DNA of 64,000 nt, taken from assembly GCF_029227915.1 (NCBI RefSeq), contig NC_079885.1, forward strand, positions 19,479,001 through 19,543,000, in the 5' to 3' direction. The position numbers and the translations under genes are program-made. Below are positions 1 through 50,800 of the stretch, in pieces; position 1 is the stretch's first letter, and each line of letters begins with the position of its first letter. The stretch is from Hydractinia symbiolongicarpus. Taxonomy: Eukaryota > Cnidaria > Hydrozoa > Anthoathecata > Hydractiniidae. The notes under the pieces are model-generated. The model saw only the letters and a list, made by a program, of their open reading frames with translations. It did no database searches and was not told where the DNA came from.

Positions 1-82
1 TCTCAAAAAGCTTGCCCTGAAAGAACGTACGTACAACTGTTAAAATAGCATTTCAATCAAGAAATAAATATCATCAAGCATA

Positions 83-154
83 TCCCGAGTGGTCTAGTGG
101 TTAGGATCCGGCGCTCTCACCGCCGTGGCCGGGGGATCGATTCCCCGCGCAGGA
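83..154 (+). tRNA. tRNA-Glu(CTC)-like, copy 1
   Basis: A box TGGTCTAGTGG; 5-bp anticodon stem CGGCG/CGCCG around loop CTCTCAC, anticodon CTC. T stem CGGGG/CCCCG closes an 8-nt loop instead of 7, and the acceptor stem has two mismatches, so function is doubtful. Confidence 0.6.
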
Positions 155-612
155 GAATACGATTTTACAACATTTCCTATTGTCGCATCTTTCCATTGGC
201 ACTTTGCAATAATGTGGTAGTGTTAAGTCATTGACGGATTTGGTCCATCTAACAGAAAATGATTAATGCAGAACCTCAGCGTTTCCAATAACTTTTTCCG
301 TATGTTTAAGAAACAAGTACATATTTTCTATTGCATAATAAAGGTTGAGGAAGATTTAGAAAACAGTTTGCGTCGAAGTGTTTAAAGGTTTTCAAGAGAC
401 ATTCTTTCTCCAATATTTTACTAACACCCCGATATGTAACTTGGCGCTTTAATAACTTTGAGATCAGCATATTTGCCAATGGCAGTGTTTCTGATTTTTA
501 ACTCGGCATTTAAGACATGTGAGAAACATTATCTCAAAAACTTGCGCTAAAAGAACGTACGTACAACTGTTAAAATAGCATTTTAATCGCGAAAATAATA
601 TCATCATGCATA

Positions 613-682
613 TCCCGTGTGGTCTAGTGGTTGCGATCCGGCGCTCTCACCGCCGTAGCGGGCTTTAATTCCCCGCCCGAGA
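613..682 (+). pseudogene. tRNA-Glu-like copy 2, degenerate
   Basis: The anticodon arm (CTC) is intact, but the D arm reads ttgcgatcc and the T arm is altered (gggctttaattcccc), destroying the B box. Confidence 0.6.
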
Positions 683-1141
683 GTATACGATTTTACAACA
701 TTTCCTATTCTCGAATCCTGCCTTTGCCACTTCAAAATAATGTGGTAGTGTGAAGGCATTGATAGTCTTGGTCCATCTAACAGAAAATGAATAATGCAGT
801 ACCTCAGCGTTTCCACTAACTTTTTCCGTATGTTTAAGAAATAAGTACAAATTTTCTATTGCATAATAAAGGTTGAGAAAGATTTAAAAAACACTTTTCG
901 TCGAAATGGTTGAAGGTTTTCAAGAGACATTCTTTCTCCAATAATTTACTAACAGCCCGATATGTAACTTGGCGCTTTAATAACTTTGAGATCAGCATAT
1001 TGGCCAATGGCGGTGTTTCTGACTTTTAACTCGGCATTTAAGACATGTGAGAAACATTATCCTAAAAAACTTGCGCTAAAAGAAAGCACGAACAACTGTT
1101 AAAATAGCATTTCAATCGCGAAAATAATATCATCATGCATA

Positions 1142-1210
1142 TCCCGTGTGGTCTAGTGGTTAGAATCCGGCGCTCGCCGCCGTAGCGGGGCTTCAATTCC
1201 CCGCCCGAGA
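1142..1210 (+). pseudogene. tRNA-Glu-like copy 3, anticodon loop deleted
   Basis: The stem-loop reads ggcgctcgccgcc: three bases of the anticodon loop are missing compared with its neighbours. A box intact. Confidence 0.6.
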
Positions 1211-1669
1211 GTATACGATTTTACAACATTTCCTATTCTCGAATCCTGCCTTTGCTACTTTAAAATAATGTGGTAGTGTGAAGGCATTGATGGATTTGGT
1301 CCATCTAACAGAAAATGAATAATGCAGTACCTCAGCGTTTCCACTAACTTTTTCCGTATGTTTAAGAAACAAGTACAAATTTTCTATTGCTTAATAGAGG
1401 TTGAGGAAGATTTACTAAACACTTTGCGTCGAAGTGTTTGAAGGTTTTCAAGAGTCATTCTTTCTCCAATATTTTACTAACAGCCCGATATGTAACTTGG
1501 CGCTTTAATAACTTTGAGATCAGCATATTGGCCAATGGCGGTGTTTCTGACTTTTAACTCGGCATTTAAGACATGTGAGAAACATTATCTCAAAAAACTT
1601 GCGCTTAAAGAACGTACGTACAACTGTTAAAATAGCATTTCAATCGCGAAAATAATATAATCATGCATA

Positions 1670-1740
1670 TCCCGTGTGGTCTAGTGGTTAGGATCCGGCG
1701 CTCTTACCGCCGTAGCGGGGCCTCGATTCCCCGCCCGAGA
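1670..1740 (+). tRNA. tRNA-like copy 4, Glu body with CTT anticodon loop
   Basis: Loop CTCTTAC in the CGGCG/CGCCG stem gives CTT (a Lys anticodon) at positions 34-36. The T loop is 8 nt (cctcgatt) and the acceptor stem has two mismatches. Confidence 0.5.
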
Positions 1741-2198
1741 GTATACGATTTTACAACATTACCTATTCTCGAATCCTGCCTTTGCCACTTTAAAATAATG
1801 TGGTAGTGTGAAGGCATTGATGGATTTGGTCCATCTAACAGAAAATGAATAATGCAGTACCTCAGCGTTTCCACTAACTTTTTCCGTATGTTTAAGAAAT
1901 AAGTACAAATTTTCTATTGCATAATAAAGGTTGAGGAAGATTTAGAAAACACTTTGCGTCGAAGTGTTTGAAGGTTTTTAAGAGACATTCTTTCTCCAAT
2001 ATTTTACTAACAGCCCGATATGTAACTTGGCGCTTTAATAACTTTGAGATCAGCATATTGGCCAATGGCGGTGCTTCTGATTTTTAACTCGGCATTTAAG
2101 ACATGTGAGAAACATTATCTCAAAAAATTGCGCTAAAAGAACGTTCGTACAACTGTTATAACAGCATTTTAATCGCGAAAATAACATCATCATGCATA

Positions 2199-2269
2199 TC
2201 CCGTGTGGTCTAGTGGTTAGGATCCGGCGCTTTCACCGCCGTACCTGGACTTCGATTGCCCGCAAGAGA
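2199..2269 (+). tRNA. tRNA-Glu(TTC)-like, copy 5
   Basis: Loop CTTTCAC gives anticodon TTC. The T loop TTCGATT has normal length, with one mismatch in the T stem and two in the acceptor stem. Followed by the 422-bp short unit. Confidence 0.55.
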
Positions 2270-2620
2270 GTATACGATTTTAAAACATTTCCTATTGTCG
2301 AATCTTGCCATTAAAACTTTATAAAAATGTGGTAGTGTTAAGTCATTGATGGATTTATTCCATCTAACAGAAAATGAATATTGCAGAACCTCAGCGTTTC
2401 CACTAACTTCTTCCGTATATTTAAGAAACGAGTACAAATTTTTAATTGCATATTAAAGGTTGAGGAAGATTTAGAAAATTGGCCAATGGTGGTGTTTCTT
2501 AATTTTAACTCGGCATTTAAGACATGTGAGGAACATTATCTCAAAAATTGTGCGCTGAAAGAACGTAGGTACAACTGTTACAATAGCATTTCAATCAAGA
2601 AAATAATATCATCATGCATA

Positions 2621-2691
2621 TCCCGCGTGGACTAGTGGTTAGGATCCGGCGCCCTTACCGCCGTAGCGGGGCCTCGATTCCCCGCCCGAGA
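2621..2691 (+). tRNA. tRNA-like copy 6, CTT in anticodon position
   Basis: Loop CCCTTAC lacks the universal U33, which argues against translation use. T loop 8 nt. A box changed to TGGACTAGTGG. Confidence 0.45.
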
Positions 2692-3149
2692 GTATACGAT
2701 TTTACAAAATTACCTATTCTCGAATCCTGCCTTTGCCACTTTAAAATAATGTGGTAGTGTGAAGGCATTGATGGATTTGGTCCATCTAACAGAAAATGAA
2801 TAATGCAGTACCTCAGCGTTTCCACTAACTTTTTCCGTATGTTTAAGAAATAAGTACAAATTTTCTATTGCATAATAAAGGTTGAGGAAGATTTAGAAAA
2901 CACTTTGCGTCGAAGTGTTTGAAGGTTTTTAAGAGACATTCTTTCTCCAATATTTTACTAACAGCCCGATATGTAACTTGGCGCTTTAATAACTTTGAGA
3001 TCAGCATATTGGCCAATGGCGGTGTTTCTGATTTTGTACTCGGCATTTAAGACATGTGAGAAACATTATCTCAAAAAATTGCGCTAAAAGAACGTACGTA
3101 CAACTGTTATAATAGCATTTTAATCGCGAAAATAACATCATCATGCATA

Positions 3150-3220
3150 TCACGTGTGGTCTAGTGGTTAGGATCCGGCGCTTTCACCGCCGTACCTGGA
3201 CTTCGATTGCCCGCAAGAGA
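3150..3220 (+). tRNA. tRNA-Glu(TTC)-like, copy 7
   Basis: Same subtype as copy 5, with one further acceptor change (tcacgtg). Followed by a 422-bp unit. Confidence 0.5.
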
Positions 3221-3571
3221 GTATACGATTGTAAAACATTTCGTATTGTCGAATCTTGCCATTAAAACTTTATAAAAATGTGGTAGTGTTAAGTCATTGA
3301 TGGATTTATTCCGTCTAACAGAAAATGAATATTGCAGAACCTCAGCGTTTCCACTAACTTCTTCCGTATATTTAAGAAACGAGTACAACTTTTTAATTGC
3401 ATATTAAAGGTTGAGGAAGATTTAGAAAATTGGCCAATGGTGGTGTTTCTTAATTTTAACTCGGCATTTAAGACATGTGAGGAACATTATCTCAAAAATT
3501 GTGCGCTGAAAGAACGTAGGTACAACTGTTACAATAGCATTTCAATCGGGAAAATAATATCATCATGCATA

Positions 3572-3642
3572 TCCCGCGTGTTCTAGTGGGTAGAGTCCGG
3601 CGCTCTCACCGCCGTGGCCGGGGTTCGATTCACCGCCTGGGA
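3572..3642 (+). tRNA. tRNA-Glu(CTC)-like, copy 8
   Basis: One of the better copies: anticodon CTC, 7-nt T loop TTCGATT, one T-stem mismatch, and acceptor TCCCGCG/CCTGGGA with one mismatch and one wobble pair. A-box region changed to tgttctagtggg. Confidence 0.55.
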
Positions 3643-4100
3643 GAATACGATTTTACAACATTTCCTATTGTCGAATCTTGCCACTGCCGCTTTAAAATAA
3701 TGTGGTAGTGTTAAGTCATTGATGGATTTGGTCTATCTAACAGAAAATGAATAATGCAGAACATCAGCGTTTCCTCTAACTTTTTCCGTACTTTAAGAAA
3801 CAAGTACAAATTTTCAATTGCATAATAAGGTTTGAGGAAGATTTAGAAAGTACTTTGCGTCGAAGTGTTTGAAGGTTTTCGAGAAACATACTTTCTCCAA
3901 TATTTTACTAACAGCCCGAGATGTAACTTGGTGCTTTAAAAACTTTGAGATAAGCATATTAGCCAATGGCGGTGTTTCTGTGTTTTGACTCGGCATATGA
4001 GATATGTGAGAAATATTATCTCAAAAAGCTTGCCCTGAAAGAACGTACGTACAACTGTTAAAATAGCATTTCAATCAAGAAATAAATATCATCAAGCATA

Positions 4101-4172
4101 TCCCGAGTGGTCTAGTGGTTAGGATCCGGCGCTCTCACCGCCGTGGCCGGGGGATCGATTCCCCGCCCGAGA
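4101..4172 (+). tRNA. tRNA-Glu(CTC)-like, copy 9
   Basis: Same anticodon arm and 8-nt T loop as copy 1, but with the cccgaga 3' acceptor strand, as if a copy-1 type and a copy-4 type unit had recombined inside the tRNA-like core. Confidence 0.5.
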
Positions 4173-4631
4173 GTATACGATTTTACAACATTTCCTATTC
4201 TCGAATCCTGCCTTTGCCACTTTAAAATAATGTGGTAGTGTGAAGGCATTGATGGATTTGGTCCATCTAACATAAAATGAATAATGCAGTGCATCAGCGT
4301 TTCCACTAACTTTTTCCGTATGTTTAAGAAACAAGTACAAATTTTCTATTGCTTAATAGAGGTTGAGGAAGATTTAGAAAACACTTTGCGTCGAAATGGT
4401 TGAAGGTTTTCAAGAGTCATTCTTTCTCCAATATTTTACTAACAGCCCGATATGTAACTTGGCGCTTTAATAAGTATGAGATCAGCATATTGGCCAATGG
4501 CGGTGTTTCTGATTGTTAACTCGGCATTTAAGACATGTGAGAAACATTATCTCAAAAAACTTGCGCTAAAAGAACGTACGTACAACTGTTAAAATAGCAT
4601 TTCAATCGCGAAAAGAATATAATCATGCATG

Positions 4632-4702
4632 TCCCGTGTGGTCTAGTGGTTAGGATCCGGCGCTCTTACCGCCGTAGCGGGGCCTCGATTCCCCGCCCGA
4701 GA
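4632..4702 (+). tRNA. tRNA-like copy 10, CTT anticodon loop
   Basis: Near-identical to copy 4: loop CTCTTAC and 8-nt T loop. Confidence 0.5.
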
Positions 4703-5160
4703 GTATACGATTTTACAACATTACCTATTCTCGAATCCTGCCTTTGCCACTTTAAAATAATGTGGTAGTGTGAAGGCATTGATGGATTTGGTCCATCTAA
4801 CAGAAAATGAATAATGCAGCACCTCAGCGTTTCCACTAACTTTTTCCGTATGTTTAAGAAATAAGTACAAATTTTCTATTGCATAATAAAGGATGAGGAA
4901 GTTTTAGAAAACACTTTGCGTCGAAGTGTTTGAAGGTGTTTAAGAGACATTCTTTCTGCAATATTTTACTAACAGCCCGATATGCAACTTGGCGCTTTAA
5001 AAACTTTGAGATCAGCATATTGGCCAATGGCGGTGTTTCTGATTTTTAACTCGGAATTTAAGACATGTGAGAAACATTATCTCAAAAAATTGCGCTAAAA
5101 GAACGTACGTACAACTGTTATAATAGCATTTTAATCGCGAAAATAACATCATCATGCATA

Positions 5161-5231
5161 TCCCGTGTGGTCTAGTGGTTAGGATCCGGCGCTTTCACCG
5201 CCGTACCTGGACTTCGATTGCCCGCAAGAGA
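5161..5231 (+). tRNA. tRNA-Glu(TTC)-like, copy 11
   Basis: Same as copy 5 in the core; third member of the TTC/short-unit subtype. Confidence 0.55.
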
Positions 5232-5582
5232 GTATACGATTTTAAAACATTTCCTATTGTCGAATCTTGCCATTAAAACTTTATAAAAATGTGGTAGTGT
5301 TAAGTCATTGATGGATTTATTCCATCTAACAGAAAATGAATATTGCAGAACCTCAGCGTTTCCACTAACTTCTTCCGTATATTTAAGAAACGAGTACAAA
5401 TTTTTAATTGCATAATAAAGGTTGGGGAAGATTTAGAAAATTGGCCAATGGTGGTGTTTCTTAATTTTAACTCGGCATTTTAGACATGTGAGGAACATTA
5501 TCTCAAAAATTGTGCGCTGAAAGAACGTAGGTACAACTGTTACAATAGCATTTCAATCGGGAAAATAATATCATCATGCATA

Positions 5583-5653
5583 TCCCGCGTGTTCTAGTGG
5601 GTAGAGTCCGGCGCTCTCACCGCCGTGGCCGGAGTTCGATTCACCGCCTGGGG
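5583..5653 (+). tRNA. tRNA-Glu(CTC)-like, copy 12
   Basis: Same as copy 8 apart from changes in the T stem (cggag) and the 3' acceptor strand (cctgggg). Confidence 0.5.
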
Positions 5654-6111
5654 TAATACGATTTTACAACATTTCCTATTGTCGAATCTTGCCACTGCCG
5701 CTTTAAAATAATGTGGTAGTGTTAAGTCATTGATGGATTTGGTCCATCTAACATAAAATGAATAATGCAGAACCTCAGCGTTTCCTCTAACTTTTTCCGT
5801 ACTTTAAGAAACAAGTACAAATTTTCAATTGCATAATTAGGGTTGAGGAAGATTTAGAAAGTACTTTGCGTCGAATTGTTTGAAGGTTTTCGAGAAACAT
5901 ACTTTCTCCAATATTTTACTAACAGCCCGAGATGTAACTTGGTGCTTTAAAAACTTTGAGATCAGCATATTAGCCAATGGCGGTGTTTCTGTGTTTTAAC
6001 TCGGCATATGAGATATGTGAGAAATATTATCTCAAAAAGCTTGCCCTGAAAGAACGTACGTACAACTGTTAAAATAGCATTTCAATCAAGAAATAAATAT
6101 CATCAAGCATA

Positions 6112-6183
6112 TCCCGAGTGGTCTAGTGCTTAGGATCCGGCGCTCTCACCGCCGTGGCCGGGGGATCGATTCCCCGCGCAGGA
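6112..6183 (+). tRNA. tRNA-Glu(CTC)-like, copy 13
   Basis: Same as copy 1 except the A box (TGGTCTAGTGC). Confidence 0.5.
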
Positions 6184-6641
6184 GAATACGATTTTACAAC
6201 ATTTCCTATTGTCGCTTCTTTCCATTGCCACTTTGCAATAATGTGGTAGTGTTAAGTCATTGACGGATTTGGTCCATCTAACAGAAAATGAATAATGCAG
6301 AACCTCAGCGTTTCCACTAACCTTCTCCGTATGTTTAAGAAACAAGTACAAATTTTCAATTGCATAATAAGGGTTGAGGAAGATTTAGAAAATTCTTTGC
6401 GTCGAAGTGTTTGAAGGTTTTGGAGAGACATTCTTTCTCCAATATTTTACTAACAGCCCGATATGTAACTTGGTGCTTTAAAAACTTTGATGTCAGCATA
6501 TTAGCCAATGGCGGTGTTTCTGACTTTTAACTCGGCATTTAAGACATGGGAGAAATGTTATCTCAAAAAACTTGCCTGAAAGAACGTACGTATAACTGTT
6601 AAAATAGCATTTTAATTGCGAAATAAACATCATCAAGAATA

Positions 6642-6713
6642 TCCCGAGTGGTCTAGTGGTTAGGATCCGGCGCTCTCACCGCCGTGGCCGGGGGATCGAT
6701 TCCCTGCGCGGGA
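6642..6713 (+). tRNA. tRNA-Glu(CTC)-like, copy 14
   Basis: Acceptor TCCCGAG/CGCGGGA with a single mismatch, perfect anticodon stem, CTC anticodon. The T loop is still 8 nt. Confidence 0.55.
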
Positions 6714-7139
6714 GAAAACGATTTTACAACATTTCCTATTGTCGCATCTTGCCATTGCCACTTTAAAGTAATGTGGCAGTTTTAAGTCATTGATGGATTT
6801 GATCCATCTAAGAGAGAATGGATATTGCAGAACCTCAGTGTGTCCACCAATTTTTTCCAGGTCTTTAACAAACATGCACAAATTTTCAATTGCAGAATAA
6901 AGGTTGTGTTGAAGTGTTTGAAAGTTTTCGAGAGACATTCTTTCTCCAATATTTTACTAACAGCCCGATATATAACTTGGTGCTTTAATAACTTTGAGGT
7001 CAGCATATTGGCCAATGGCGGTTTTTCTGACATTTAACTCGTCATTAAAGACATGTGAGAAACATTATCTCAAAAAAAAGAACGTACGTACAACTATTAA
7101 AATGAAATTTCCATCGCGAATATTATATCATCATAGATA

Positions 7140-7200
7140 TCCCGTGTGGTCTACTCGTTAGGATCCGCCACTTTCATTGGTTCAATACCCCGCACGGAGA
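7140..7200 (+). pseudogene. tRNA-Glu-like copy 15, internally deleted
   Basis: Only about 61 nt: the 3' half of the anticodon arm and the variable loop are missing (ccactttcattggttcaatacc). Confidence 0.6.
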
Positions 7201-7657
7201 ATGCCATTTTACATCTTTTTCCTATTATCGAATTTTGCTTTTGAAACTTTAAAATAATATGGTAGTGTTAAGTCATTGATGGACTTCGTCCATCTAAGAG
7301 AAAATGAACAATGCTGAATCTCAGAGTTTCCATTACCTTTTTCTGTATGTTTAACAAACAAGTTCAAATTTTCAATTGCAAAGTAAAAGTTGAGGAAGGT
7401 TTTAAAATACTTTTCGTCGAAGTGTTTGAAGGTTTTCGAGAGACATTCTTTCTCTAATATTTTACTAACAGCCCGATATGCAACTTGGTGCTTTAATAAC
7501 TTTGAGATTAGCATAATGGCCAATGGCGGTGTTTTTGAATTTTAACTCGGCATTTAAGACATGTGAGAAACATTATCTCAAAAAATTTGCGCTGAAAGAG
7601 GGTACGTACAACTGTTAAAATAGCTTTTCAATCGCGAAAATAATATCATCATGCATA

Positions 7658-7728
7658 TCCCATGTGGTCTAGTGGCTAAAATCCGGCGCTCTCCCCACCG
7701 TGGCCGGGGTTCGATTACGCGCACGATA
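7658..7728 (+). pseudogene. tRNA-Glu-like copy 16, degenerate
   Basis: Loop CTCTCCC, a mismatch in the anticodon stem (CGGCG/CACCG), and broken T and acceptor stems. Confidence 0.55.
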
Positions 7729-8187
7729 GTGTACGATTTTACAACATTTCTTATTGTCGAATTTTGCATTTGCCACTTTATAATAATGTGGTAGTGTTAA
7801 CTAATTGATGGATTTGGTGCAACTAACAGAAAATGAACAATGCAGAAACTCAGCATTTCCGCTGTCTTTTTCCATGTGTTTAACAAACATGTACAAATTT
7901 TCAATTGCATAATAAAAGTTGAGGAAGGTCTTAAAATACTTTTCGTCGAAGTGTTTGAAGGTTTTCGAAAGACATTCTTTCTCCAATGTTTTACTAACAG
8001 CCCGATATATAACTTGGTGCTTTAATAACTTTGAGATCAGCATATTGGCCAATGGCGGTGTTTCTGACATTTTACTCGGCATTTAAGAGATGTGAGAAAC
8101 ATTATCTCAAAAAAACTTGCGCTGAAAGAATGTACGTACAACTGTTAAAATAGCATTTCAATCGGCAAAATAAGTTCATCATGCATA

Positions 8188-8258
8188 TCCCGTGTGGTCT
8201 AGTGGTGAGGATCCGGCCTTCTCACTGCCGTGGCTGGGGTTCGATTCCACGCACGGGA
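8188..8258 (+). tRNA. tRNA-Glu(CTC), copy 17, best preserved
   Basis: Perfect 7-bp acceptor stem TCCCGTG/CACGGGA; A box TGGTCTAGTGG; B box GGTTCGATTCC; anticodon CTC with U33; 7-nt T loop TTCGATT and one T-stem mismatch. The most likely functional copy and closest to a founder tRNA gene. No T run follows directly as a Pol III terminator. Confidence 0.65.
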
Positions 8259-8624
8259 GATTTCGATTGTACAACATTTCCTATTGTCGAATTTTGCATT
8301 TGACACTTTATAACAATGTGGTAGTGTTAACTAATTGATGGATTTGGTCCATCTAACAGAAAATGAACAATGCAGAAACTCAGCATTTCCACTGGCTTTT
8401 TCCATGTGTTAAACAAACATGTACAAATTTTCAATTGCAAAGTAAAAGTTGAGGAAGGTTTAGAAAATACTTGCGTCGAAGTGTTTGAAGGTTTTTGCAA
8501 AACTTTCTTGTTGCCACATCTGTGTAAATGCAATATATCTATCAAAAAAAAAGAAAACATTTTCAAATTTCCATGGCAACAGTTTACAAGATTGAACTGT
8601 AAAAGTTTTTCTGAAAACATAAAA

Positions 8625-9263
8625 ATGGAAATACAAGTTTTATTGGCAACTATTTCACTTCTTCTTGAAGATGACAATGTGGGATACACAAAAGGTAAGA
8701 AAAAAAGTGGAAATAAACGCAAGTGGATAAGACCGTGGATGCAACGAAGAAATAAAGAGGGAGCATGTCATAAAATTTTCCAGTAACTAATGTGGGAAGA
8801 TTCTAAAGGTTTCCGAGAATACATAAGAATTGATGAAGCTTAATATGATGAATTTGTTAAACGTTTACGACCTTATTTAACAAAGAAAGACACAATAATG
8901 CGTAATGTATTAAACCTGAATAAATGTGTTGCTTGACGCTCAGGTATCTTGCCAGTGGCGAGTCATATGGATTCCTGGAATATCAATTTAGAATAAGCAG
9001 AAAAACAATTTCCTACATTATTGCTGAGGTTTGTCTTGCTACATTAAAATCGTTTGGAAAAGAATATCTTCACACTCCTAATACCGTAGAACAATGGCAA
9101 GCCATAAGTAAGAAATTCCAATATTCGATGGGATTTTTCGAACGGAATGAGTGACGTAGATGATAAGCATGTGGTTTTTGAACAGCCTAAGAATTCTGGT
9201 TCCCATTACCGTAATTACAAAGGTACGGATAGCGTAATGGGTATGGTTGGTCCGGTCCCATAA
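8625..9263 (+). pseudogene. PIF/Harbinger transposase, broken
   Basis: DNA transposase of the PIF/Harbinger (HARBI1-like) superfamily, which cuts and pastes its element through a DDE nuclease. The reading starts at ATG 8625 and contains KRKWIRPWMQRRNKEGA (8715 onward), the usual N-terminal motif. After a stop at 8784 it resumes with EYIRIDEA-like residues and, at about 8940-9150, the helix-turn-helix block LRYLASGESYGFLEYQFRIS. A frameshift near 9150 leads to DDKHVVFEQPKNSGSHYRNY (9159-9263), the first part of the DDE domain. It stops where the middle and end of the domain should follow; the sequence joins directly to the end of the convergent MADF gene. Stops, frameshifts and the internal deletion show it is dead. 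Confidence 0.85.
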
Positions 9264-9975
9264 CTCTGTTTTAGCAGATTGCTCTTCCTCCTTGTTTGTA
9301 ATTTTCTTTCTTTTACTTGCCGGTGCCAAATAATATTCCTCTGTGTCTAACGATGAATATGAGTCATCAACAGCACATGTTATTTCGACAAATGTCATGC
9401 TTCCAAAATGTTTCCATGAAAACACAAACAAATCACGTGAACCTAAGTCAGAGCTTTCGGAAGCTTCTTGACGCTGACGCTCCCTTTTAAAAATAGTCAA
9501 AAGGTTGTGCCACTCTTTTTTAATTTCGTCAGTCGTACATATTTTTTACATTCTTCAATTAACTTATTTAATATTGCTTGTCTTAAGCCGCGGTTTCGAT
9601 ATTCTTGCATTCTATGATCCAACAGCGGTGGATTGTTTTTGTAGAAATTAATTAACCTATCTCTTTCCTCGTCTGTAAACACTGTGGTTTTTATTTTTTC
9701 TTCTTCAAGAAAAAAAAGCATTTGATCATAGAGCTTCCATTTCTTCAAACAATTCTTGTACTTCCTTGATGCTCAATTACATCAACTGTGTACTTTCCAT
9801 CGAATAACTTCATTAAATTCCCCTTTGCATCTCTTTTTCGTTGCTTACTATTAGCTTGAAATCCTTTATTATCTTCGTAAAATTTAATAAGATTATTTTT
9901 TTCTTCGTCAGAAAGACGTACATTGGTCTGATTCTCTTGATTTTCAGTTATCTCGTCTTGTCTTTCCTCCGCCAT
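9264..9975 (-). pseudogene. MADF/Myb-SANT-like accessory protein of a Harbinger element, broken
   Basis: PIF/Harbinger elements usually carry a second gene for a Myb/SANT or MADF-type DNA-binding protein that helps the transposase. Minus-strand reading from ATG 9975 gives LSDEEKNNLIKFYEDNKGFQ and MKLFDGKYTVDVI (one MADF-like helix set), then a stop at 9745. A second stretch (9748-9497) has DERDRLINFYKNNPPLLDHR followed by AILNKLIEE, another MADF-like repeat. A third frame (9500 down to about 9264) carries a linker and the basic, acidic tail ASKRKKITNKEEEQSAK. Three reading frames are needed, so it is inactive. The arrangement is convergent with the transposase, as in intact elements. Confidence 0.75.
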
Positions 9976-16800: not shown

Positions 16801-19800
16801 GGTTCACTCTGTTATCGTAACAGAAAAATGAGAGAATTCGTCAGCATGAAAGCATCTGAAGTTTATCATGGGGAGGATGATAAAAATGTTGCTGTTTTTG
16901 GCATTGAAGGGTCAAAACCTGGTGCTTCTGCTGCTAGTGTAGCTTTGTCACATAAGGTATGTTCACAGATCCACTTACTGTATTTACTGGAATAACTGCT
17001 TGTATTACTTCAGAATTCAAGGACTTGCACGTTAAGGAGGAGGTCTGAGAATTTTAAAAATGACTACGAAATAGTTTTATTTAAACAAAACACGACACAG
17101 ATTATTCATTTAATTTCAACCTTCAACCACGTATATTAATACCAATAGGTAAGGAAAGAAATAGTTTGTCAAGATAATTTGGATGAATATCATCTTTTGT
17201 TTCAATAAACTTCGTGACAAATTATTTTCGTGAATAGCCGATTTCTAGGATTTGCAGAAAAAAATAATTTGCGTGTGTTTATTGCTTTTATTACAAGTTT
17301 ACGACTATTAATCAAATAGTTGGAAGAATTGTGTCCTTTAGTAACATGAAAGTCTATAAGACTCATCTCTCCACTTCTGCAGCTGGCACGATGTCAGCGA
17401 AAGAAAAAACTATTTCTGTTATTAAGATATGTGAACAAAGTGCAGACGGGGTCGAAGATTGGTGAATTACGCGAACAAAATGACTTTATCCGAAGATTTT
17501 GCTAAACATAAGGTTTTGGAAATGTATAGTATAGTGCGAGTATATAATTTTGCAAATAGAAAAATTGACAAAAATTCGCGAGAACATATTTTCGCGAATG
17601 GCGACAGTGGCAATTAAAGCATTTTGCGAAAAGCTTAAAAATTCATTCTCGTGAAATTATTCACCTACATGCGTTGTTGGTCCTGTTAATTTTAAAATTT
17701 ATCGACAGCATTCCTTACATTACAGGTTATAGGATTAAATGACAAGGGATATGGAAGAATTTTAGGCCAATGTCAATTCAGTGCCAAATTGTTTTATTGT
17801 CTATGGATGACAGTTGCAAAAGATTATGACGAATGGCATTGTTTGAATTTTGTTGACATGCCTTCGTGTATTGGAAAAACGGTAGAGGAACAGAAAGGAT
17901 TCATACGAAGAAGAATTTTAGGACGGCAAAACACTGAACTAATTCAGGTATGACCATTACAGTTTACTAAACGTATTATACGTTAAGGGAACTAATTTTC
18001 CGAATTCATTTTTGCGAGTCAAGAAATGTTGTATTTCGCATTAAATTTTGCGAATTTAATACATATTGATTCTTCACAGGAATTTTTGCGGTTACTGGAT
18101 TTGCAATAATTTTTTTGATCTGATAAAAACCGCGAAAGTCTCGGGTTTTTAAAACCTTTATCTCTATTTACTATTTTGTATAAAATGTTAAATTTTAGTT
18201 TAAATTTTTGTGTCTATTAAAAATATGTCGCCGGCATTATATTTCGCGAAAAATGTGAACAAAATTACGCGGAAATTAGTTCCCTTAAGGTAGTTAACTT
18301 CGCAATTAATACTTAATGTCATTGATATGCCATAGTACTATTTGCAACATTTAGCCTTGGTTATGTCCATTTAGGCTCACAAACATAAATCTTTATTCTT
18401 ATTACCATATTCGTGAAAAGTAGAATAAATTTATTTACACTCCCAATTTCAACACTAGGACAGGGAGGCAATGGAGTTTCTTTCAACGATTGGTCCTGAT
18501 GCTTTGATCAATACCTTTGCTGTAAACATGAAATCCAACACGGATATTTTAATTTGTAATGAAATTCAACAACTATTATTTGATGAAACCAATGGTAAGC
18601 GTCGCGCTTTGCAAATCTGTTTAAAATCTTTGTAATATCAAGATTAATGGAAGGTGTATATTTACCGTAATATTCCTAAAGAGCATTCAAAAGGTACAGA
18701 AAGAGGAAACATTATAAAAAAGATTACATTATTAGACAGGTCCCTTTCCACTAAAGTGGTGTTTCGTGTTGCAATATCTATTTCACTCTATTGCAGTCTA
18801 GAAAACTTGCCTCTAAAGTACTTACTTCGTTATTAAAGATTTCATTTTGGTTTGTATGTTCAGTTTCATATTATGATGGCAGAAGTATCTCCCGAAACGT
18901 CCGCCTACTAAACTATCATGTTCAAGAAATAATAAACCTTAAACAATAAAACTTTGCCATTAACTTCCTTCTTATATTTCGACCATTTCACACTCATAAA
19001 AAGAATACTTATTTTTCGTTCAGCAGCAATTGGTAAAACCACCAAAAGGATATCTTTGTTTCTGACTGGTTCTGTGCTGAACAGTAACCATTATGGTGCA
19101 GGACTCAGTGATTTCAAAGCAAGACTGGGACTTTCCTCCTCTGATCATAGAAATTTAAGAATTATGCGAAATACTTGTTTGAATCCATTTCAATGCAGCG
19201 AAAATTATGTGATTGAAGCTGGAAATGCATTTCGAAATGCTGTTTTGAATTGCATTGGAGGGGTAAGTTTTCGTGTATACTGTCACTAAAATATATACCA
19301 CTTACTTTTTTGTTTGCAATCTTGTAACTTCTCAATCACTAAGGCAATCTGGTTGGCTTAAGATATAAGAAATTTTTTTGCAGGTCATGTCTGGAGTTTC
19401 GGCTGTTGTCCCGAAGATTTTATCACGCATCACAAATATATCTCTTTATCTTAATATATTTCTTTATTTTAACTTATCATTTAAATATATCCACAGTCTA
19501 GAATAGTCTCCTGAGAAAGCTCAAATGTTAAAAACTTCTGTCCAGCCACAATTTGCCGGATTTTAAGCAAACAAGATTTTCTCACTCCTTTAAAAGATAC
19601 AAAGACCTGTAATTAACGCGAAAACATGAAAACAGATAAGCTATGTGATTTAGTTAATTGCTTCTTCGTTATTGTTTGAATTTAATTTTTCATAGCTTCA
19701 AAATCACTACGGCGATCCTGCAGATTTGCATTCATTTGTTGTGTGTGGTAAAATGGATCACAACGGAAAAGTGTTTTTGGATTATATGCCATCATTCTCA

Positions 19801-39588: not shown

Positions 39589-40354
39589 CAGTACTGGAAA
39601 AAGGTTGTTTAATATATCTAGTGGGCAACGTGCGTGGACTCCCTCGATACGCAATGTACCGCGTTTATAATAAGAAGAAACAATTATAATAAATTGTCGC
39701 AATCTATCGAGAATCAAGTATATATTGTGACAAAATCTATTTCAGTGTGTCGCAATGGTAGGTGATAATGAGAATAAAGAGAAAGTTTTTTTAATGAGAA
39801 TAGAGAGAAAGTTTTTTTTATTTCAAACACATCTCTGCTTTATCTTTTTTTTAAAAAATAGGTGTATATTATAAGAAAATTTTTAACTTTCGTATTTATT
39901 AAAGTGTATAGTTTATAAACTTTTAAAATTCGATCTTAAAAAACATTTCTATCGCTGCATTTCGTTTATAACTTTTTAACTTCGATCTAAAAAAGCATTT
40001 CTAACGCCGCATTTCGTTCTTAAACTTTTAAAATTCGATCTAAAAAAACATTTCTATTGTCACTTTTCATTTATAAAAAACTTTTAAAATTCGATCTTAA
40101 AAAACATTTCTATTGTCACTTTTCATTTACAAAAAACTTTTAAAATGCGATCTTAAAAAACATTTCTATCGCTGCATTTTGTTTATAACTTTTTAACTTC
40201 GATCTAAAAAAGCATTTCTATCGCCGCATTTCGTTCTTAAACTTTTAAAATTCGATCTAAAAATTTGAAAGTAAAAAAAAAACGTCTATTGCAGATCGAG
40301 AATACCGTCGCGATACACGAAGCGCGATGTTAAACAACCTTTTTCCAGTATTGT
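39589..40354. mobile_element. TIR element filled with about 60-bp tandem repeats
   Basis: CAGTACTGGAAAAAGGTTGT at 39590 and its inverse ending CCAGTATTG (40353) make TIRs of about 24 bp with one mismatch, next to TA on both sides, consistent with a mariner-type target site. 39900-40265 holds six copies of a unit with acttttaaaattcgatct and aaaaaacatttctatcgctg, length 59-62 bp. No ORF. Confidence 0.8.
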
Positions 40355-43389: not shown

Positions 43390-46270
43390 TTAACGTGGTG
43401 TATCATACCAGTTGTGGTTCATCTGGTATCTGGAATAGATATTTATCAAGGCTGTTTTGAGGATGCTAAAGAGCTTTATTCCATGGATGGGTAAGCTGAA
43501 CTCTGCCTGTAACCCTAACTGTATGGACCACATGGAAGTTTTGCTTTCCACCCATGCCAAGGATGATGATAGCTTTGGATTTTCAGATTGACATTTGGTA
43601 CCAACTGTTCCATGATTTTCCAAATATAAATTATTCGATACCTTTTCCTTCTACGCTCCAATGAATACAATTTCAGTTCCTTCAGTGCTTTCCAATAATT
43701 GTGATTGGTCAAGTTTCTGATTTTTCGAATTAGAACCATTGCAATGCCTCTATCATCTGCATCTCTCCAACTTTATGTGGACTCCATAGGACTGAACAAT
43801 ACTCTAATAGAGGAAGAACAAGAGATTTCCACATGGTCATAAGGTGATCCTTCGTTCTGGTGTAAAAAGTTCTTAAAATCCAAGACATCATGTTTTTACT
43901 GTCATTTACTACTTTCAATATGTGGTGATAAAAGAAGAAAGTTGGTGGATAATATGACACCAAGATCTTTCAGTTTCTCTTGCTCTGTGATGATGGATGC
44001 AGTGGGGGAAAGATACGACGTGCAATTTTTCAGGGTGTCGTTTGTGCCATAATGCATGACCTCAAACTTTATATCATTAAATTTCATGTTTGCATCTTCT
44101 GGCCATAATTGCTGATAGCTTCATAATTTTTCTGTAGATCACTTTGCAACTTGCTCATGTCCCTGAGATAGTCGATGCTCTTGGTAACCCTTTTATCATC
44201 GGCAAATGACCGTACAATGAAGATAAGTGGTCCAAGCACACTACCTTGGGGGTACGCCTGAAAAACCAGCAACAGGATGTGATTCCATTCCATTGACAAT
44301 GACTGATTGGGTGCGGTTTGTCAGGAAAGGTTCAACAAAGTTAAATAATTTTCCTTTGATTACAAGTTTTTCAAGTTTTTTTAAGACAATGGTAAAATCC
44401 ACTTTGTCGAAGGCTATCGCAAAGTCAAGGTATACAATGTCACAATTTAGTTTTCCATCAACAAAGTATATCACATTATCGAAATCGTCTAAGAGTTGGC
44501 TAAGACATGACCGACCAGAGAAAAATCATGTTGATTTTCGTTTAGCAGCTTGTTTTCTTCAAGGTAGCAAGAGATATGATTCCCTACGACTTTTTCGAAA
44601 ATTTTAATAATATGAGATGTCAAGGCTACTGGGCGGTAATTGGATGCATCAGATTTCTTTTCCCCATTGAAATGAGGTGTGATTAGTGAGTGCTTTAAAA
44701 TTTGGGTAATTTCACTACAGTCCATACATTTTTGGCATAACAGAAGAAGTGGTACAGATAGCGATGTTTTATACTACTTCAGAAAAATTGCTCGGAAGCC
44801 ATCTGGGCCTGGTGCAGAGTTGTCAGAGAGTTCATCAATTGCATTGATGATGTCTTTTGAGAGAAGTGGAGTTCTGGAATTTCTGATGTGTGTTGGGGTA
44901 GGTTGATTGTTATGTCTTCTACATGTTTTGGCTTACTGAATACTCTCTGATATTGACGGGAAAAGATTTCAGCCATATCTCTGCTCTCATGTGTTAATTT
45001 ATTGCTGTGATCCATAAGCGGTCCAATTTTTGTTTTTATTTTAGAAAACTTTTGCGTATGAATAAAAGTATTTAGCATTTTTTTTTTTGATAGCTTCTAA
45101 AGCTGTTTTTTCTTTTTGTAGATTTCCATTTAAATAAGATTTTTGTAAATTTTTTTCTATTTCAAGAAGTTCCTTGACTAGTTTTTTCTTTTTTGCAGGT
45201 GAAAAGGTATTGTTCAATATTTTGTGGATTCTTCTTCTCCTCCTTGTGAGATTTCGGCAGTATCATAAATGTTTGTTTGATCTGACAGTTGTTTTTGCAG
45301 ATTTGCTTGGGACTATTGCTGAAGACATATTGTAACATATAGCATAAAATATAAATAGTATTTCATTCACATCTTTTTTTTTTTGAAATTCGTTATGGCA
45401 ATCATAGTGAAGATTATTATTCAGTTTTTCCCAGTCTATATCTTCTTTAAAATAATTAAGCGACATGAAAGATGTTAGGCGCTCTTTGGGGGGTGTTTGC
45501 ATGCTTTGTTTTACCTTGAAGAGAGTTAGTACTTCAACAAAGCTATGATGAGATATACTGAGTAGCGTAGGAATAATTTGATAATCAAAAGACATATCAA
45601 TGTTGTTCAAGAATACCAGATCAAGAGGTTTCTAGTCCCATGTTGCATTAACTTTTTGCAAAGTCTAGAATGAAGGAATTTACATGATGCACCTTTCATA
45701 CCATGTTTACATTTTCCTTTTTTAAAAAAGGAACAAATTTTGGAAGTCATTTTCGGTTCTCCAGTTGTGTTATCTTGAGATGAGTTACTTTGTTGTGGTG
45801 GGAGTGACCTTGTAATAGTAAGCTCAGTCTCCGTGTTTGGTTCAGGATCACTTGTGGAGATTTCAGGGTCCAACAAATTTTCTGCGCATTCATTTGTGGC
45901 ACTAGATTTTATGTTACATTTCACTTGAGTTTTAGGTTGTTTGACAACATTTTGAGGAATGGCTGATTTGTCACAATGGTCACAAATATAATAAATACCA
46001 GGTAGTAAAAAAGGATTATAAAGCTGTTTGAGCGACATTTCATCTTTATCCTCCAAAAGATCATCAAGGCTAGAAATCACTAATTGAAGCCAACATTGCT
46101 TATGAACAGCCTGATCACAAACGGCACATTTGAGGATAGGGATTTCCTCAAATGACGTTTGGTATCTCTGTTTGCAGAGAGTGCAATCTTCTGGTAAAAG
46201 GTTTTGAATTCTGCAAATGATAAGATGAATGAGGTCTGGCTTGGTTACATGGCTACAGCCTGGAATATTG
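43390..46270 (-). mobile_element. CR1/L2-type LINE, minus strand, decayed
   Basis: Non-LTR retrotransposon read on the minus strand. From 5' (high coordinates): a Cys-rich PHD-like stretch (CTLCKQRYQ, then CAVCDQAVHKQCW, CDHCD; 46240-45960); a CCCH finger ICSFFKKGKCKHGMKGASC (about 45760-45690), typical of ORF1-like regions; a join after QHGTRNLL that skips most of the AP endonuclease; the linker before RT (45610-45263); reverse transcriptase with VALTSHIIKIFEKVVGNH, DIVYLDFAIAFDKVD, PQGSVLGPLIFIV and the catalytic FADD (44230-44200); and a C-terminal region with LEYCSVLWSPHKVG and LYSLERRRKRYRIIYIWK (to about 43600). Several frames are needed, so it is dead. Confidence 0.88.
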
Positions 46271-46279
46271 AGAAATATA

Positions 46280-48120
46280 GCAGTTTCCTATAAAATGGGT
46301 TTGTTCGACTTTGAAAATTCTCTACTTACTTGCTGAAGGGATTTTCTGTATTGATAATTCCTCAAGGAAGGAAGGAGGTATTCAAGATAGCAAAGCAAAT
46401 GTCTGATGATGATGTTGTAGAAGGGCCAGCTATGCAGATCAAGACAGAATGGGTAGTGGAGGCTATTAGGAAATTAAAGGTTGGCAAGGCTGCAGGAGTA
46501 TCAGGTATTGTTGCAGAGATGGTAAAAGCATCTGGATATATTGGAGTTGAGCTTATTACAAGTCTTGCTAACCAGATTATAAAGGATAGTGCTATTCCGA
46601 GTGAGTGGCAGTCGAGTGTAATAGTGAATTGTTTCAAGGGCAAGGGTGATGCATTAGAAAGGGGTAACTGTAGATGTTTGAAGTTGGTTGATCAAGTAAT
46701 GAAAGTTATTGAAAGAGTGATTGATAAGTTACTTAGAGAAAGAATTGATATAGATAAGATGCAATTTGGTTTTGTTCCAGGGCGTGGCACTACAGATGCA
46801 ATATTTTTACTCAGACAGCTTCAGGAAAAGTATTTAGAAAAGAAAAAGAATCTCTATTTTGCCTTTGTAGATTTAGAGAAAGCTTTTGATAGAGTGCCAC
46901 GTAAAGTTATTTGGTGGGCTATGAGAAAATTAGGTGTGGATGAGTGGTTAGTTACGATGGTACAGTGTATGTACAGCAATGCTAGAAGTCGTGTCAGGAT
47001 TAACGATTCACTTGGTGATGAATTTAGTGTAAATGTTGGTGTACATCAGGGTTCTGTACTTAGTCCTTTGTTGTTTATCTTAGTCTTAGATGCGCTGTCG
47101 ATGGAGTTCAGAACAGGTTGTCCATGGGAGTTTTTGTATGCAGATGATTTGGTTCTCATAGCAGAGTCGATGGAAGAATTAGTTGAAAAGTTTGAGAAGT
47201 GGAAGAAAGGACTAGAAGAGAAAGGGCTAAAGGTAAACACAGCAAAGTCTAAGGTCATGATTAGTAGCATTGCAGCCAAGTGTGACCTTGTAGTTGGAAA
47301 GTGGCCTTGTGGAGTTTGCAGGAAAGGGGTTGGTAGTAACTCAATTTTTTGTCAGACTTGCAAGCATTGGGTACATAAGAAGTGCAGTAGTATTAGTGGA
47401 AGGTTAAGAGCTGACATTCAGTTTGTATGCAAGCGTTGCAAAGGTGAGATTATAGAGAATGAAGTATTTCCAGCTTTAATAATGTACAACAGTGGCTCGT
47501 TAGAGATAGTTGAGAACTTCTGTTACTTAGGTGATATGTTGGGCAGTGAAGGGGGTGTTGGAAGAAGTGTTACTTGCAGGATAGGTTCTGCTTGGAAAAA
47601 GTTCAGAGAGTTACTTCCTTTGTTGACTAGCAGAGCCCTGTCAATTGAGGTAAAAGGTAGGTTGTATGAGGCCTGTGTAAGAAGTGTTATGTTGTACGGT
47701 AGTGAGACATGGTCAGTGAAGCAGGAAGATCTTGACTGTTTAGAAAGGAATGATATGAGAATGGTTAGGTGGATGTGTAACGCCAGTCTGAGAGACAGAA
47801 AGAGTTCAGATGAGCTAAGAAGCAGGCTAAGTCTCCGTAGAATTAAAGATGTTATCCAGATAAGAAGATTGAATTGGCTGGGGCACTTGGAAAGAATGGA
47901 GGAGGATAATTAGGTAAGAAAGTGTAGAGACTTGATAGTTCCTGGGGCAAAGCCCAGAGGCAGACCGAGAAAGACTTGGCAGGAGGTTATAAGGACAGAC
48001 TTGATACAGAGGAAGTTGAGTTTAGATCTAACACAGTCTAGATCAGATTGGAAGAGGGTCATTAATATACCCCGTCCAACCCATGCTAGCATGGAAAACA
48101 GACGTTAAGCCGAGAATGAT
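46280..48120 (+). mobile_element. LINE with embedded PHD-like finger, 5'-truncated
   Basis: Second non-LTR element, opposite strand, abutting the first near 46280. It holds one long RT reading and a 3' tail ending around 48120. The N-terminal endonuclease is missing, the usual result of incomplete reverse transcription. A shorter, much more decayed relative lies at 61925-62700 in a CYLD intron. Confidence 0.85.
46330..48108 (+). pseudogene. Reverse transcriptase of the plus-strand LINE, one nonsense codon
   Basis: RT ORF of 527 codons to TAG 47911-47913; the same frame then runs on to TAA 48106-48108. Motifs: GKAAGVSGIVAEMVK; QFGFVPGRGTTDAIF; FAFVDLEKAFDRVPR (motif A with catalytic Asp); HQGSVLSPLLFILVL; FLYADDLVLIAES (catalytic YADD). 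Residues about 330-375 form a zinc-finger-like insert: CGVCRKGVGSNSIFCQTCKH, then WVHKKC and CKRC. The tail has LYGSETWSVKQEDL and RLNWLGHLERMEEDN. The TAG is where a Trp is expected (EEDN-W-VRKC; TGG to TAG by one base), then CRDLIVPGAKPRGRPRKTW completes the element. Otherwise open, so a fairly recent insertion. Confidence 0.88.
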
Positions 48121-49409: not shown

Positions 49410-50800
49410 ATTAAAAGTGCACGCAAAACAAGAGATTCTATCAAAGTATCATAATAAATTGCGGTACTGTATGTCAATGATCTTATCAATGGAACCTTTT
49501 GGGAAAGTTCACTTGTTTGCAGATGACACTAATATTCTACCTTCCAGGGTTCGAATTAACAGTTCGCAATTCACAATTTGTGAATCCAAATGCCATTTTT
49601 GTAATTCACTTTGCAAGGAAAATGATAAATTTGCAAATCGAATATTTTTAAGCAGCGATAGAAATGCTTTTTCAGATCGGGTTTTAAAAATTTAGGAACG
49701 AAAAACACCAATAGAAAAGCTTTGTTATATCACATTTTAAAAGTTTAAGAACGAAGAGCAGCGATAGAAAAGCTTTTTAGATCGCATTTTAAAAGTTTAA
49801 GAACAAAAAGCGGTGATAGAAATGCTTTTTTAGATCGCCTTTAAATAGTTTAAGAAAGAAAAGCGGTGATAGAAATGCATTTTTAGATCACATTTTAAAA
49901 GTTTAAGAACGAAGAAAGGCAATAGAAAAAATTTTTTAGATCTCATTTTAAAAGTTTATCAATGAAGAACGGCGATGGAAAAGCTTTTTTAGATCGTATT
50001 TTAAACTTAAGAACAAAGAATGGCGATAGAAAAGCTTCGTTATATCGCATTTCAAAAGTTTAAGAACAAAAAACGACGGATAGAAAAGCTTTTTCAGATC
50101 CCTGAGATAGATCCCTGAGATAAAACCTGCATTTAAGCTCTAACATCAAGCAACTTTTTAAGCATGTCAATATGAACCTGCTCATAGTTACATGTGATTA
50201 TCCCTTAACACCTCAAAGACAAAATATATATTATCTTCAAGCCTAAAAATAAAAGCCCTAATTGGGTTTTAAGTCAGTACCACAAAAATCTCTGAATCTA
50301 CTTGCATCAAATATCTCGGTTTACTTAAAGATAACACCTTATCCTGGAAACCACAAATTAATGCCGCAATAAAAAAACTAAGATCTACCAACTGTGTTAT
50401 TGCGAAACTGAGACACTCTGTGCCCTTAAAAGTCACTATCAATATCTATTATTATCTTTTTTATTTAAACTGAAATACAAATTCTTAATATCACTTTATT
50501 ATAAAACTTTTTCTCAAATGACATTCCTCAACCACTTGCTGAAACTTTTGATGTCAATGCTATCCATAGCCGTTATAACACAAGAAACAAATCTGCGGGT
50601 ATGCTAGACCACTTTCATTGCAACCCTTACACTATGGTTTCAACTGAATCAAATGTCAAAGAGTTCCATCTTTATCTTGGATAATCTTTAAAAGGCAACT
50701 AATCTATCTTTTTGTCACTTTCTGTCCCTTCTATAAAATCTAACCTAACTTCATATTTTTCTTTCCAGTTATGACCCTCCTTGTCTTTTGTAACGTAATT
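49410..50800 (+). pseudogene. LINE reverse transcriptase remnant, interrupted
   Basis: RT fragment GKVHLFADDTNIL at 49507-49545 (catalytic FADD box) is followed by about 600 bp of tandem repeats, then the RT/thumb region resumes at about 50135 with NIKQLFKHVNMNLLIVT. Further on come STCIKYLGLLKDNTLSWKPQ and INAAIKKLRSTNCVIAKLRH (50300-50440, frame changes). Stops are frequent. It belongs to a different family from the two LINEs at 43-48 kb, judging by these motifs. Confidence 0.75.
49550..50130 (-). repeat. Tandem repeats related in inverse to those at 40 kb
   Basis: About eight units of gcgatagaaaagctttttag plus atcgcattttaaaagtttaa, 59-62 bp each. The unit is the reverse complement of the 39900-40265 unit (ttaaacttttaaaattcgat; aaaaaagcatttctatcgc). 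Inserted between the RT FADD box and the downstream RT part of the LINE remnant. Confidence 0.85.

What the first reader, a model, noticed from the sequence alone, without database searches (positions are those of the whole stretch)
1..8497. Tandem array of tRNA-Glu-like genes with unit subtypes and higher-order structure
Seventeen tRNA-like cores lie on a 529-bp period over at least 8.5 kb. Unit length and core type are linked: all three TTC copies are followed by the same 422-bp unit, with one shared 107-bp spacer deletion, so units were amplified as blocks. Tandem tRNA arrays of this kind are known only sporadically in eukaryotes, and a mixed-anticodon array with conserved spacer is unusual. 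It could be a tRNA cluster, a satellite born from a tRNA gene, or a chromatin boundary/Pol III landmark.
Basis: partly seen in the sequence, partly recalled or inferred. Interest (0 to 1): 0.78.

Follow-up and report, generated by a model that had tools for sequence, protein, structure and literature searches.

The report
Giant tandem array of tRNA-Glu genes
The window holds the decayed right end of a roughly 268-kb chain of about 500 copies of a glutamate transfer-RNA gene unit, a type of gene array already described in the colonial hydroid Hydractinia, in which a good part of the inner copies still look like working genes while the outer copies are broken.

Summary
The repeat is real. Window 1-8509 holds 17 head-to-tail units of about 529 bp, each starting with a tRNA-Glu-like core. 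It is the right end of an array spanning C11:19219486-19487509, about 268 kb, an estimated 490-500 units. The consensus core is an intact tRNA-Glu(CTC) gene, identical over 72 of 72 bases to a solitary gene on another contig. In the window 0 of 17 cores are fully paired CTC genes and 2 of 17 reach Rfam's tRNA threshold. In the best interior block read, 13 of 19 are fully paired. In the interior, old core differences are scarce relative to young ones compared with spacer windows; at the edges they are not. I read it as a gene array maintained in the middle and dying at its margins. The kind is known; the living-centre, dying-edge pattern is the added result.

The parts
1..8509 (+). right end of the tRNA-Glu tandem array (17 units, about 529 bp each; array continues about 260 kb to the left of the window)
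   Evidence: blastn of one unit; extent
83..154 (+). core 1 (CTC; T arm altered)
613..684 (+). core 2 (broken)
1142..1213 (+). core 3 (broken, shortened)
1670..1741 (+). core 4 (broken)
2199..2620 (+). 422-bp unit with TTC core at 2199-2270 and 107-bp spacer deletion
2621..2692 (+). core 6 (broken)
3150..3571 (+). 422-bp unit with TTC core at 3150-3221
3572..3643 (+). core 8 (CTC; broken stems)
4101..4173 (+). core 9 (CTC; 37.8 bits in Rfam RF00005, above threshold)
4632..4703 (+). core 10 (broken)
5161..5582 (+). 422-bp unit with TTC core at 5161-5232
5583..5654 (+). core 12 (CTC; broken stems)
6112..6184 (+). core 13 (CTC; T arm altered)
6642..6714 (+). core 14 (CTC; T arm altered)
7140..7211 (+). 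core 15 (heavily degenerate)
7658..7729 (+). core 16 (degenerate)
8188..8259 (+). core 17 (CTC; 41.2 bits in Rfam RF00005, best of the window)
8260..8509 (+). last, truncated spacer; array ends here

Best explanation
This is the right margin of a tandem tRNA-Glu(CTC) gene array of about 268 kb and an estimated 490-500 units, of the kind described in Hydractinia. Each unit is one tRNA-Glu gene or its remains plus a spacer of about 457 bp. Shown: the array, its extent, its block structure, the intact consensus gene, the gradient of decay, and the shortage of old core differences in the interior. Inferred: units multiply by unequal exchange or gene conversion; interior copies are transcribed by RNA polymerase III from the A and B boxes inside the gene and supply tRNA-Glu, so broken interior copies are lost over time; units near the ends exchange less, escape selection and decay to a plain satellite. 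The window shows only that dead margin.
For: Unit matches fill 108.5 kb contiguously, apart from one 3.2-kb insert; 8 of 8 probes 110-245 kb left of the window are array and 12 of 12 at 275 kb and beyond are not; the leftmost core is at C11:19219486. The consensus core is a complete tRNA-Glu(CTC); two interior 10-kb blocks hold 12 cores identical to it and 12 hits of 59.0 bits in Rfam. A solitary gene on C6 is identical over 72 of 72 bases, shares no spacer, and has its own T run. Decay map, fully paired CTC cores: interior blocks 13/19, 8/19, 4/18 and 2 to 6 of 13-20 units; left end 1/23; last 38 kb on the right 0/75. Intact B box: 121/178 inner, 17/103 edge. Nucleotide diversity: the core ranks 36-38 of 39 windows (most variable) in the four edge blocks but 3-21 of 39 in the five inner blocks. 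Old/young ratio of differences in the core: 1.29 inner, lowest of 23 windows (spacer windows 1.93-4.98); 2.76 at the edges, rank 5 of 23. Over 12 settings the inner core ranks 1 of 18 in 11 and 2 of 18 in one; the edge core ranks 3-8. In the interior the deficit is present at A/T sites too (core/spacer ratio young 1.01, old 0.45), so GC-biased conversion alone does not explain it. U2 RNA genes in the same genome lie in a tandem array of about 5.85-kb period on C9.
Against: Pooled over 200 units of the 108.5 kb, the core is no more conserved than the spacer (0.077 against 0.069), and even in the inner blocks the core is never the least diverse window (ranks 3, 5, 13, 17 and 21 of 39). Only 51 of 178 inner units sampled are fully paired CTC genes. 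Of 52 such cores in the whole sample, 27 have a T4 run right behind the gene; in the other 25 the first T4 lies 65-172 nt after base 70. At the edges A/T sites also drop, from a young core/spacer ratio of 2.01 to an old one of 1.19, so the contrast between zones is not clean in every base class. There is no excess of compensatory changes. Inner and edge zones were drawn after seeing the data. No expression, Pol III occupancy or raw-read evidence is available.
Confidence: 0.7

Rival explanations
1. A plain satellite that happened to capture a tRNA gene: no copy is needed, and the interior looks intact only because it was amplified recently.
For: Pooled core and spacer diverge alike, and the core is never the least diverse window of a block. 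Multi-unit blocks and a segmental duplication are typical of satellites. Most units sampled are broken. At least one isolated, identical tRNA-Glu(CTC) gene exists, and three more matches to its centre lie on other contigs.
Against: The interior core has the lowest old/young ratio of all windows in 11 of 12 settings and the edge core in none; recency acts on core and spacer alike and would not be expected to give this.
Confidence: 0.22
2. A chromosomal landmark, such as a TFIIIC or Pol III boundary or a centromere-associated array, in which the tRNA cores act as protein-binding sites.
For: tRNA gene clusters have barrier activity in yeasts and mouse (discussion passages of PMC4041453). The array is very long and lies inside the contig, at 19.2-19.5 of 31.0 Mb.
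Against: Nothing found here points to it. Edge units have mostly lost the B box (17 of 103 intact), where a boundary would be expected to act. The matches listed off C11 were single places on four contigs, so no sign of one array per chromosome, though that list is incomplete.
Confidence: 0.05
3. Assembly artefact: copy number inflated or collapsed.
For: No raw reads could be examined; long arrays are hard to assemble.
Against: Units differ from one another (mean pairwise identity 88.5%), inserts break the array, and the 204 kb joined contain no N. PMC11067881 argues against artefact for such arrays in Hydractinia.
Confidence: 0.03

Closest known systems
Tandem ncRNA arrays of Hydractinia symbiolongicarpus and H. 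echinata (PMC11067881: section 14 read in full; other passages)
   Same: [quoted passage not shown] tRNAs of all 20 amino acids; U2 also arrayed, as seen here.
   Different: The words Glu and pseudogene do not occur in its main text (whole-word search), and section 14 gives no test of which copies are intact or under selection. Its supplementary tables could not be read here.
tRNA arrays of Entamoeba (PMC2652664, passages)
   Same: Tandem units carrying tRNA genes; homogenisation ascribed to concerted evolution.
   Different: There units hold up to 5 tRNA genes, in E. histolytica with short tandem repeats between genes; here each unit has one tRNA gene.
Human tRNA VNTR at 1q23.3 (PMC4041453, passages)
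   Same: Tandem repeat that includes tRNA-Glu; long and head-to-tail.
   Different: 7.3-kb GC-rich unit with several tRNA genes, 9-43 units, 98% identity between units, CTCF sites; here a 529-bp unit, AT-rich spacer, about 500 units, 88.5% mean identity.
Higher-order centromeric satellites such as alpha satellite (recalled, no call)
   Same: Block amplification and a homogeneous centre with decayed margins.
   Different: The unit here carries an intact tRNA gene in part of the interior; no link to a centromere was tested.

Membership tests
Hydractinia-type tandem tRNA array | Tens to hundreds of evenly spaced copies | tested here: met
   202 units in 108.5 kb plus 79 in further blocks; about 529-bp period
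[quoted passage not shown]
   Spacer about 457 bp, aligned in 281 units
Hydractinia-type tandem tRNA array | Copies nearly identical or highly similar | tested here: met
   200 units: mean pairwise identity 88.5%; median best match 98.7%
Hydractinia-type tandem tRNA array | Copies recognised as tRNA genes by Infernal/tRNAscan-SE | tested here: met
   RF00005 above threshold: 2 of 17 units in the window, 105 hits in the 100 kb to its left, 32 in two interior 10-kb blocks, 27 in 28 kb nearer the left end; tRNAscan-SE was not available
Hydractinia-type tandem tRNA array | Genome is that of Hydractinia | tested here: inconclusive
   480.9 Mb in 76 contigs against 482.9 Mb in 84 scaffolds for HSymV2.0 (passages); U2 array present. 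C11 has a rounded length (31,041,000) like the published N50 (33,314,500), but C6 (33,855,397) has not, so that is weak.
Plain (non-genic) satellite | Tandem units with higher-order blocks | tested here: met
   1481-bp blocks and a duplication of about 10.4 kb
Plain (non-genic) satellite | No constraint on the tRNA core | tested here: not met
   Not met in the interior by the old/young test; met at the edges; the plain diversity test is mixed in the interior
tRNA-derived SINE | Dispersed copies of core plus body | tested here: not met
   No copy in the 95 kb right of the array; the one off-array copy whose flanks were read (C6, 1 of 4 listed off C11) shares only the 72-bp gene and one base more
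CTCF-bound tRNA VNTR / boundary | Insulator occupancy | not testable with these tools
   No chromatin data

The most novel reading that the evidence does not exclude
A tRNA gene array that works as a self-renewing gene reservoir: hundreds of copies, with new intact units generated and kept by selection in the middle and old units pushed to the margins where they decay, so that one chromosome segment displays the whole life history of a tandem RNA gene, comparable to the active core and dead flanks of centromeric satellites.
Probability: 0.45. Interest if true: 0.55.

Novelty: new member of a known kind. Interest (0 to 1): 0.42.

Why it matters
Animal tRNA genes are usually dispersed (general knowledge); very large tandem tRNA arrays are on record for few eukaryotes, and their biological significance is stated to be unclear (PMC11067881). 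Here interior and margins of one array act as a built-in comparison: the old/young test finds the mark of purifying selection in the interior and not at the margins. That makes the question testable with tRNA sequencing, and gives a model of how selection and unequal exchange could maintain hundreds of copies of a small gene.

Tried and rejected
Core as mutation hotspot: closely related unit pairs differ about twice as often in the core as in the rest of the unit. Split by base class, most of this vanishes in the interior (ratios 1.25, 1.01, 1.21 for G/C, A/T, CpG sites); at the edges the ratios are 0.96, 2.01 and 1.18, the A/T value resting on 22 core differences. I do not claim transcription-associated mutagenesis. 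The pair choice was biased towards similar spacers, so the window tests choose pairs without the window tested. The bootstrap ratio (inner 0.37, 95% 0.29-0.46; edge 0.70, 0.52-1.12) still has that bias and is not used as evidence.

Compensatory changes as proof of RNA structure: 1 in 97 distinct inner cores and 7 in 62 distinct edge cores; the paired fraction does not exceed shuffles (403 and 102 of 500 shuffles reach it).

tRNA-derived SINE, mixed-anticodon functional cluster, assembly artefact: see the rivals and the membership test. Relatives elsewhere: a 43-nt piece of the core has 0 exact matches in viral contigs. Naming the organism by protein: one hit without a name for an exon with a weak CAP-Gly match.

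Genome-wide counts: the DNA search had too many candidates to be scored. One search reports 400 forward and 0 reverse matches, but its list stops on C11 at 19288079 although identical cores lie further right, so I treat 400 as a floor. In one search only 46 of 110725 first-look candidates were scored. Searches for U4, U3 and U5 did not complete.
Full report
What is there. The finding is correct as an observation. Window 1-8509 holds 17 head-to-tail units. ARAGORN of them tRNA-Glu, seven with anticodon CTC and three with TTC. Only 2 of 17 cores reach Rfam's threshold for tRNA (8188-8259 at 41.2 bits, 4101-4173 at 37.8 bits). Unit lengths and the link between the TTC core and the 422-bp unit are as stated; 9 of 9 units of 422 bp in the 108.5 kb read contiguously are TTC.

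The array is far larger than the window. The 100 kb to its left is filled with the same unit except for one 3.2-kb insert. Eight of eight 700-bp probes from 110 to 245 kb to the left are array, and twelve of twelve at 275 kb and beyond are not. Finer probes and the edge sequence put the leftmost core at C11:19219486, followed by another 3.2-kb insert. The array therefore spans about 268 kb. Dividing by 529 bp after taking out both inserts gives about 494 units; this is an estimate, as 281 units were aligned and the stretches 19265-19295 and 19305-19379 kb were seen only through probes and the places listed. No unit occurs in the window right of 8509 or in the next 40 kb.

Internal structure. 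Mean pairwise identity of 200 units is 88.5%, median best match 98.7%. Identity peaks at a lag of three units, where 26 of 197 pairs are at least 98% identical, and again at 19 and 20 units (14 of 181 and 12 of 180). The right part is built largely of 1481-bp blocks that include the 422-bp unit, and a segment of about 10.4 kb occurs twice. This is the mark of exchange or duplication in blocks.

Is the core a gene? The consensus core has all 21 stem pairs, anticodon CTC, and T4 shortly after the gene. It is identical over 72 of 72 bases to a solitary tRNA-Glu gene on C6, whose flanks do not match the array spacer and which has its own T run. A 43-nt piece of it is also present without mismatch on C12 and C13 and with one mismatch on C14; their flanks could not be fetched. 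So the array carries a tRNA-Glu(CTC) sequence that this genome also uses, or at least keeps, as a single gene.

Where is it intact? Fully paired CTC cores per block, from left to right: 1/23, 8/19, 13/19, 4/18, then 4/19, 3/13, 5/19, 4/19, 6/19, 2/20, 2/18, then 0/19, 0/20, 0/19 and 0/17, the last being the window. Both ends are dead or nearly so and the middle is not. The gradient is not symmetrical: the best block read lies about 35-45 kb from the left end.

Is it selected? Pooled over the 108.5 kb, core and spacer diverge alike (0.077 and 0.069), which by itself speaks for a satellite. By block, the core is among the most diverse windows at the edges (ranks 38, 37, 38 and 36 of 39) and unremarkable to low inside (17, 13, 5, 3 and 21 of 39). 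I then divided the 281 units into edge (103: the left-end block and everything from C11:19446000) and inner (178). For 72-bp windows I compared young differences (between closest pairs, chosen without the window tested) with old differences (from the zone's consensus). In the inner zone the core has old/young 1.29, lowest of 23 windows; spacer windows range from 1.93 to 4.98. At the edges it is 2.76, rank 5 of 23. With four distance limits and three zone borders the inner core ranks 1 of 18 in 11 of 12 settings and 2 of 18 in one; the edge core ranks 3 to 8. Split by base class, the inner core falls from young core/spacer ratios of 1.25, 1.01 and 1.21 to old ratios of 0.65, 0.45 and 0.49 (G/C, A/T, CpG sites). 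At the edges the young ratios are 0.96, 2.01 and 1.18 and the old ones 1.42, 1.19 and 1.09; the fall at edge A/T sites goes against a clean contrast, on few counts. On balance core mutations arise in the interior but do not last. Purifying selection on working genes is the simplest reading. Gene conversion favouring the consensus core is not excluded, though a G+C bias would not protect A/T sites. Zones were drawn after seeing the data, units are not independent, and windows overlap, so the ranks are not probabilities.

Promoter parts. Consensus-type B boxes are intact in 121 of 178 inner and 17 of 103 edge units; the strict A-box pattern in 119 and 50. A T4 run within bases 69-100 is present in 103 of 178 inner and 95 of 103 edge units, so the terminator does not follow the decay of the gene. 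Of 52 fully paired CTC cores in the sample, 49 have the B box, 35 the A box, 33 both, and 27 a T4 run directly behind the gene. The A- and B-box patterns and the T4 rule are recalled, not taken from a call.

What is known. [quoted passage not shown] The same section names Entamoeba and one mammalian case as other examples, and reports tRNA, 5S and U5 arrays in Nematostella. This genome resembles H. symbiolongicarpus in size and contig count, and its U2 genes also lie in a tandem array: all 46 scored matches (of 110725 first-look candidates) are on C9, many 5.85 kb apart. The HSymV2.0 paper lists 8.67 Mb of 'Small RNA' repeats (passages). C11 has a rounded length like the published N50, but C6 has not, so this adds little. 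The organism remains an inference, at about 80% in my judgement. I file the array as a new member of that kind: it may well be listed in the paper's supplementary tables, which I could not read.

Verdict. The array as a whole is best read as a tRNA-Glu gene array with a living interior. What works and what is transcribed is inferred; extent, decay map and selection pattern are computed.

Noticed in passing
window 39911-40263 and 49655-50100: Two tandem repeats of about 53-56 bp that are reverse complements of each other (77-nt arms up to 90% complementary) flank about 9.4 kb, including a 532-codon open frame with reverse transcriptase and PHD finger matches at 46315-47913: possibly one large mobile element or nested elements.
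   Followed up: partly
window 8640-9545: Just right of the array end lie fragments that by eye resemble a broken PIF/Harbinger-type transposase (recalled likeness, no call) and, on the other strand, a weak MADF/Myb-like match below Pfam's cut-off.
   Followed up: no
G000:C11:19395659-19398883 (L009): A 3.2-kb insert inside the array that by eye resembles a non-LTR retrotransposon on the minus strand, with long endonuclease- and reverse-transcriptase-like frames interrupted by stops (no family search was run).
   Followed up: partly
G000:C11:19219968-19223198 (L044): A second insert of 3.2 kb near the left end, with no blastn match to the first; part of it is 84% similar to window 59597-60291.
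   Followed up: no
G000:C9:7108744-7293531: U2 RNA genes in a tandem array with a period of about 5.85 kb and changes of strand along the array; further single U2 matches on C9 up to 12.3 Mb.
   Followed up: no
L042 3632, 4163, 5219; L010 2244: Some array copies carry anticodon GTC (Asp) instead of CTC; L010:2244 scores 52.0 and L042:3632 51.9 bits. Possible mis-charging copies or plain pseudogenes.
   Followed up: no
array, edge units: Edge units keep the T4 run behind the core more often (95 of 103) than inner units (103 of 178), although their genes are broken. Unexplained; may be subfamily history.
   Followed up: no
window 46001-48000: Strong GC skew (0.398) over the stretch with the reverse transcriptase frame, far above the other 2-kb steps of the window.
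   Followed up: no
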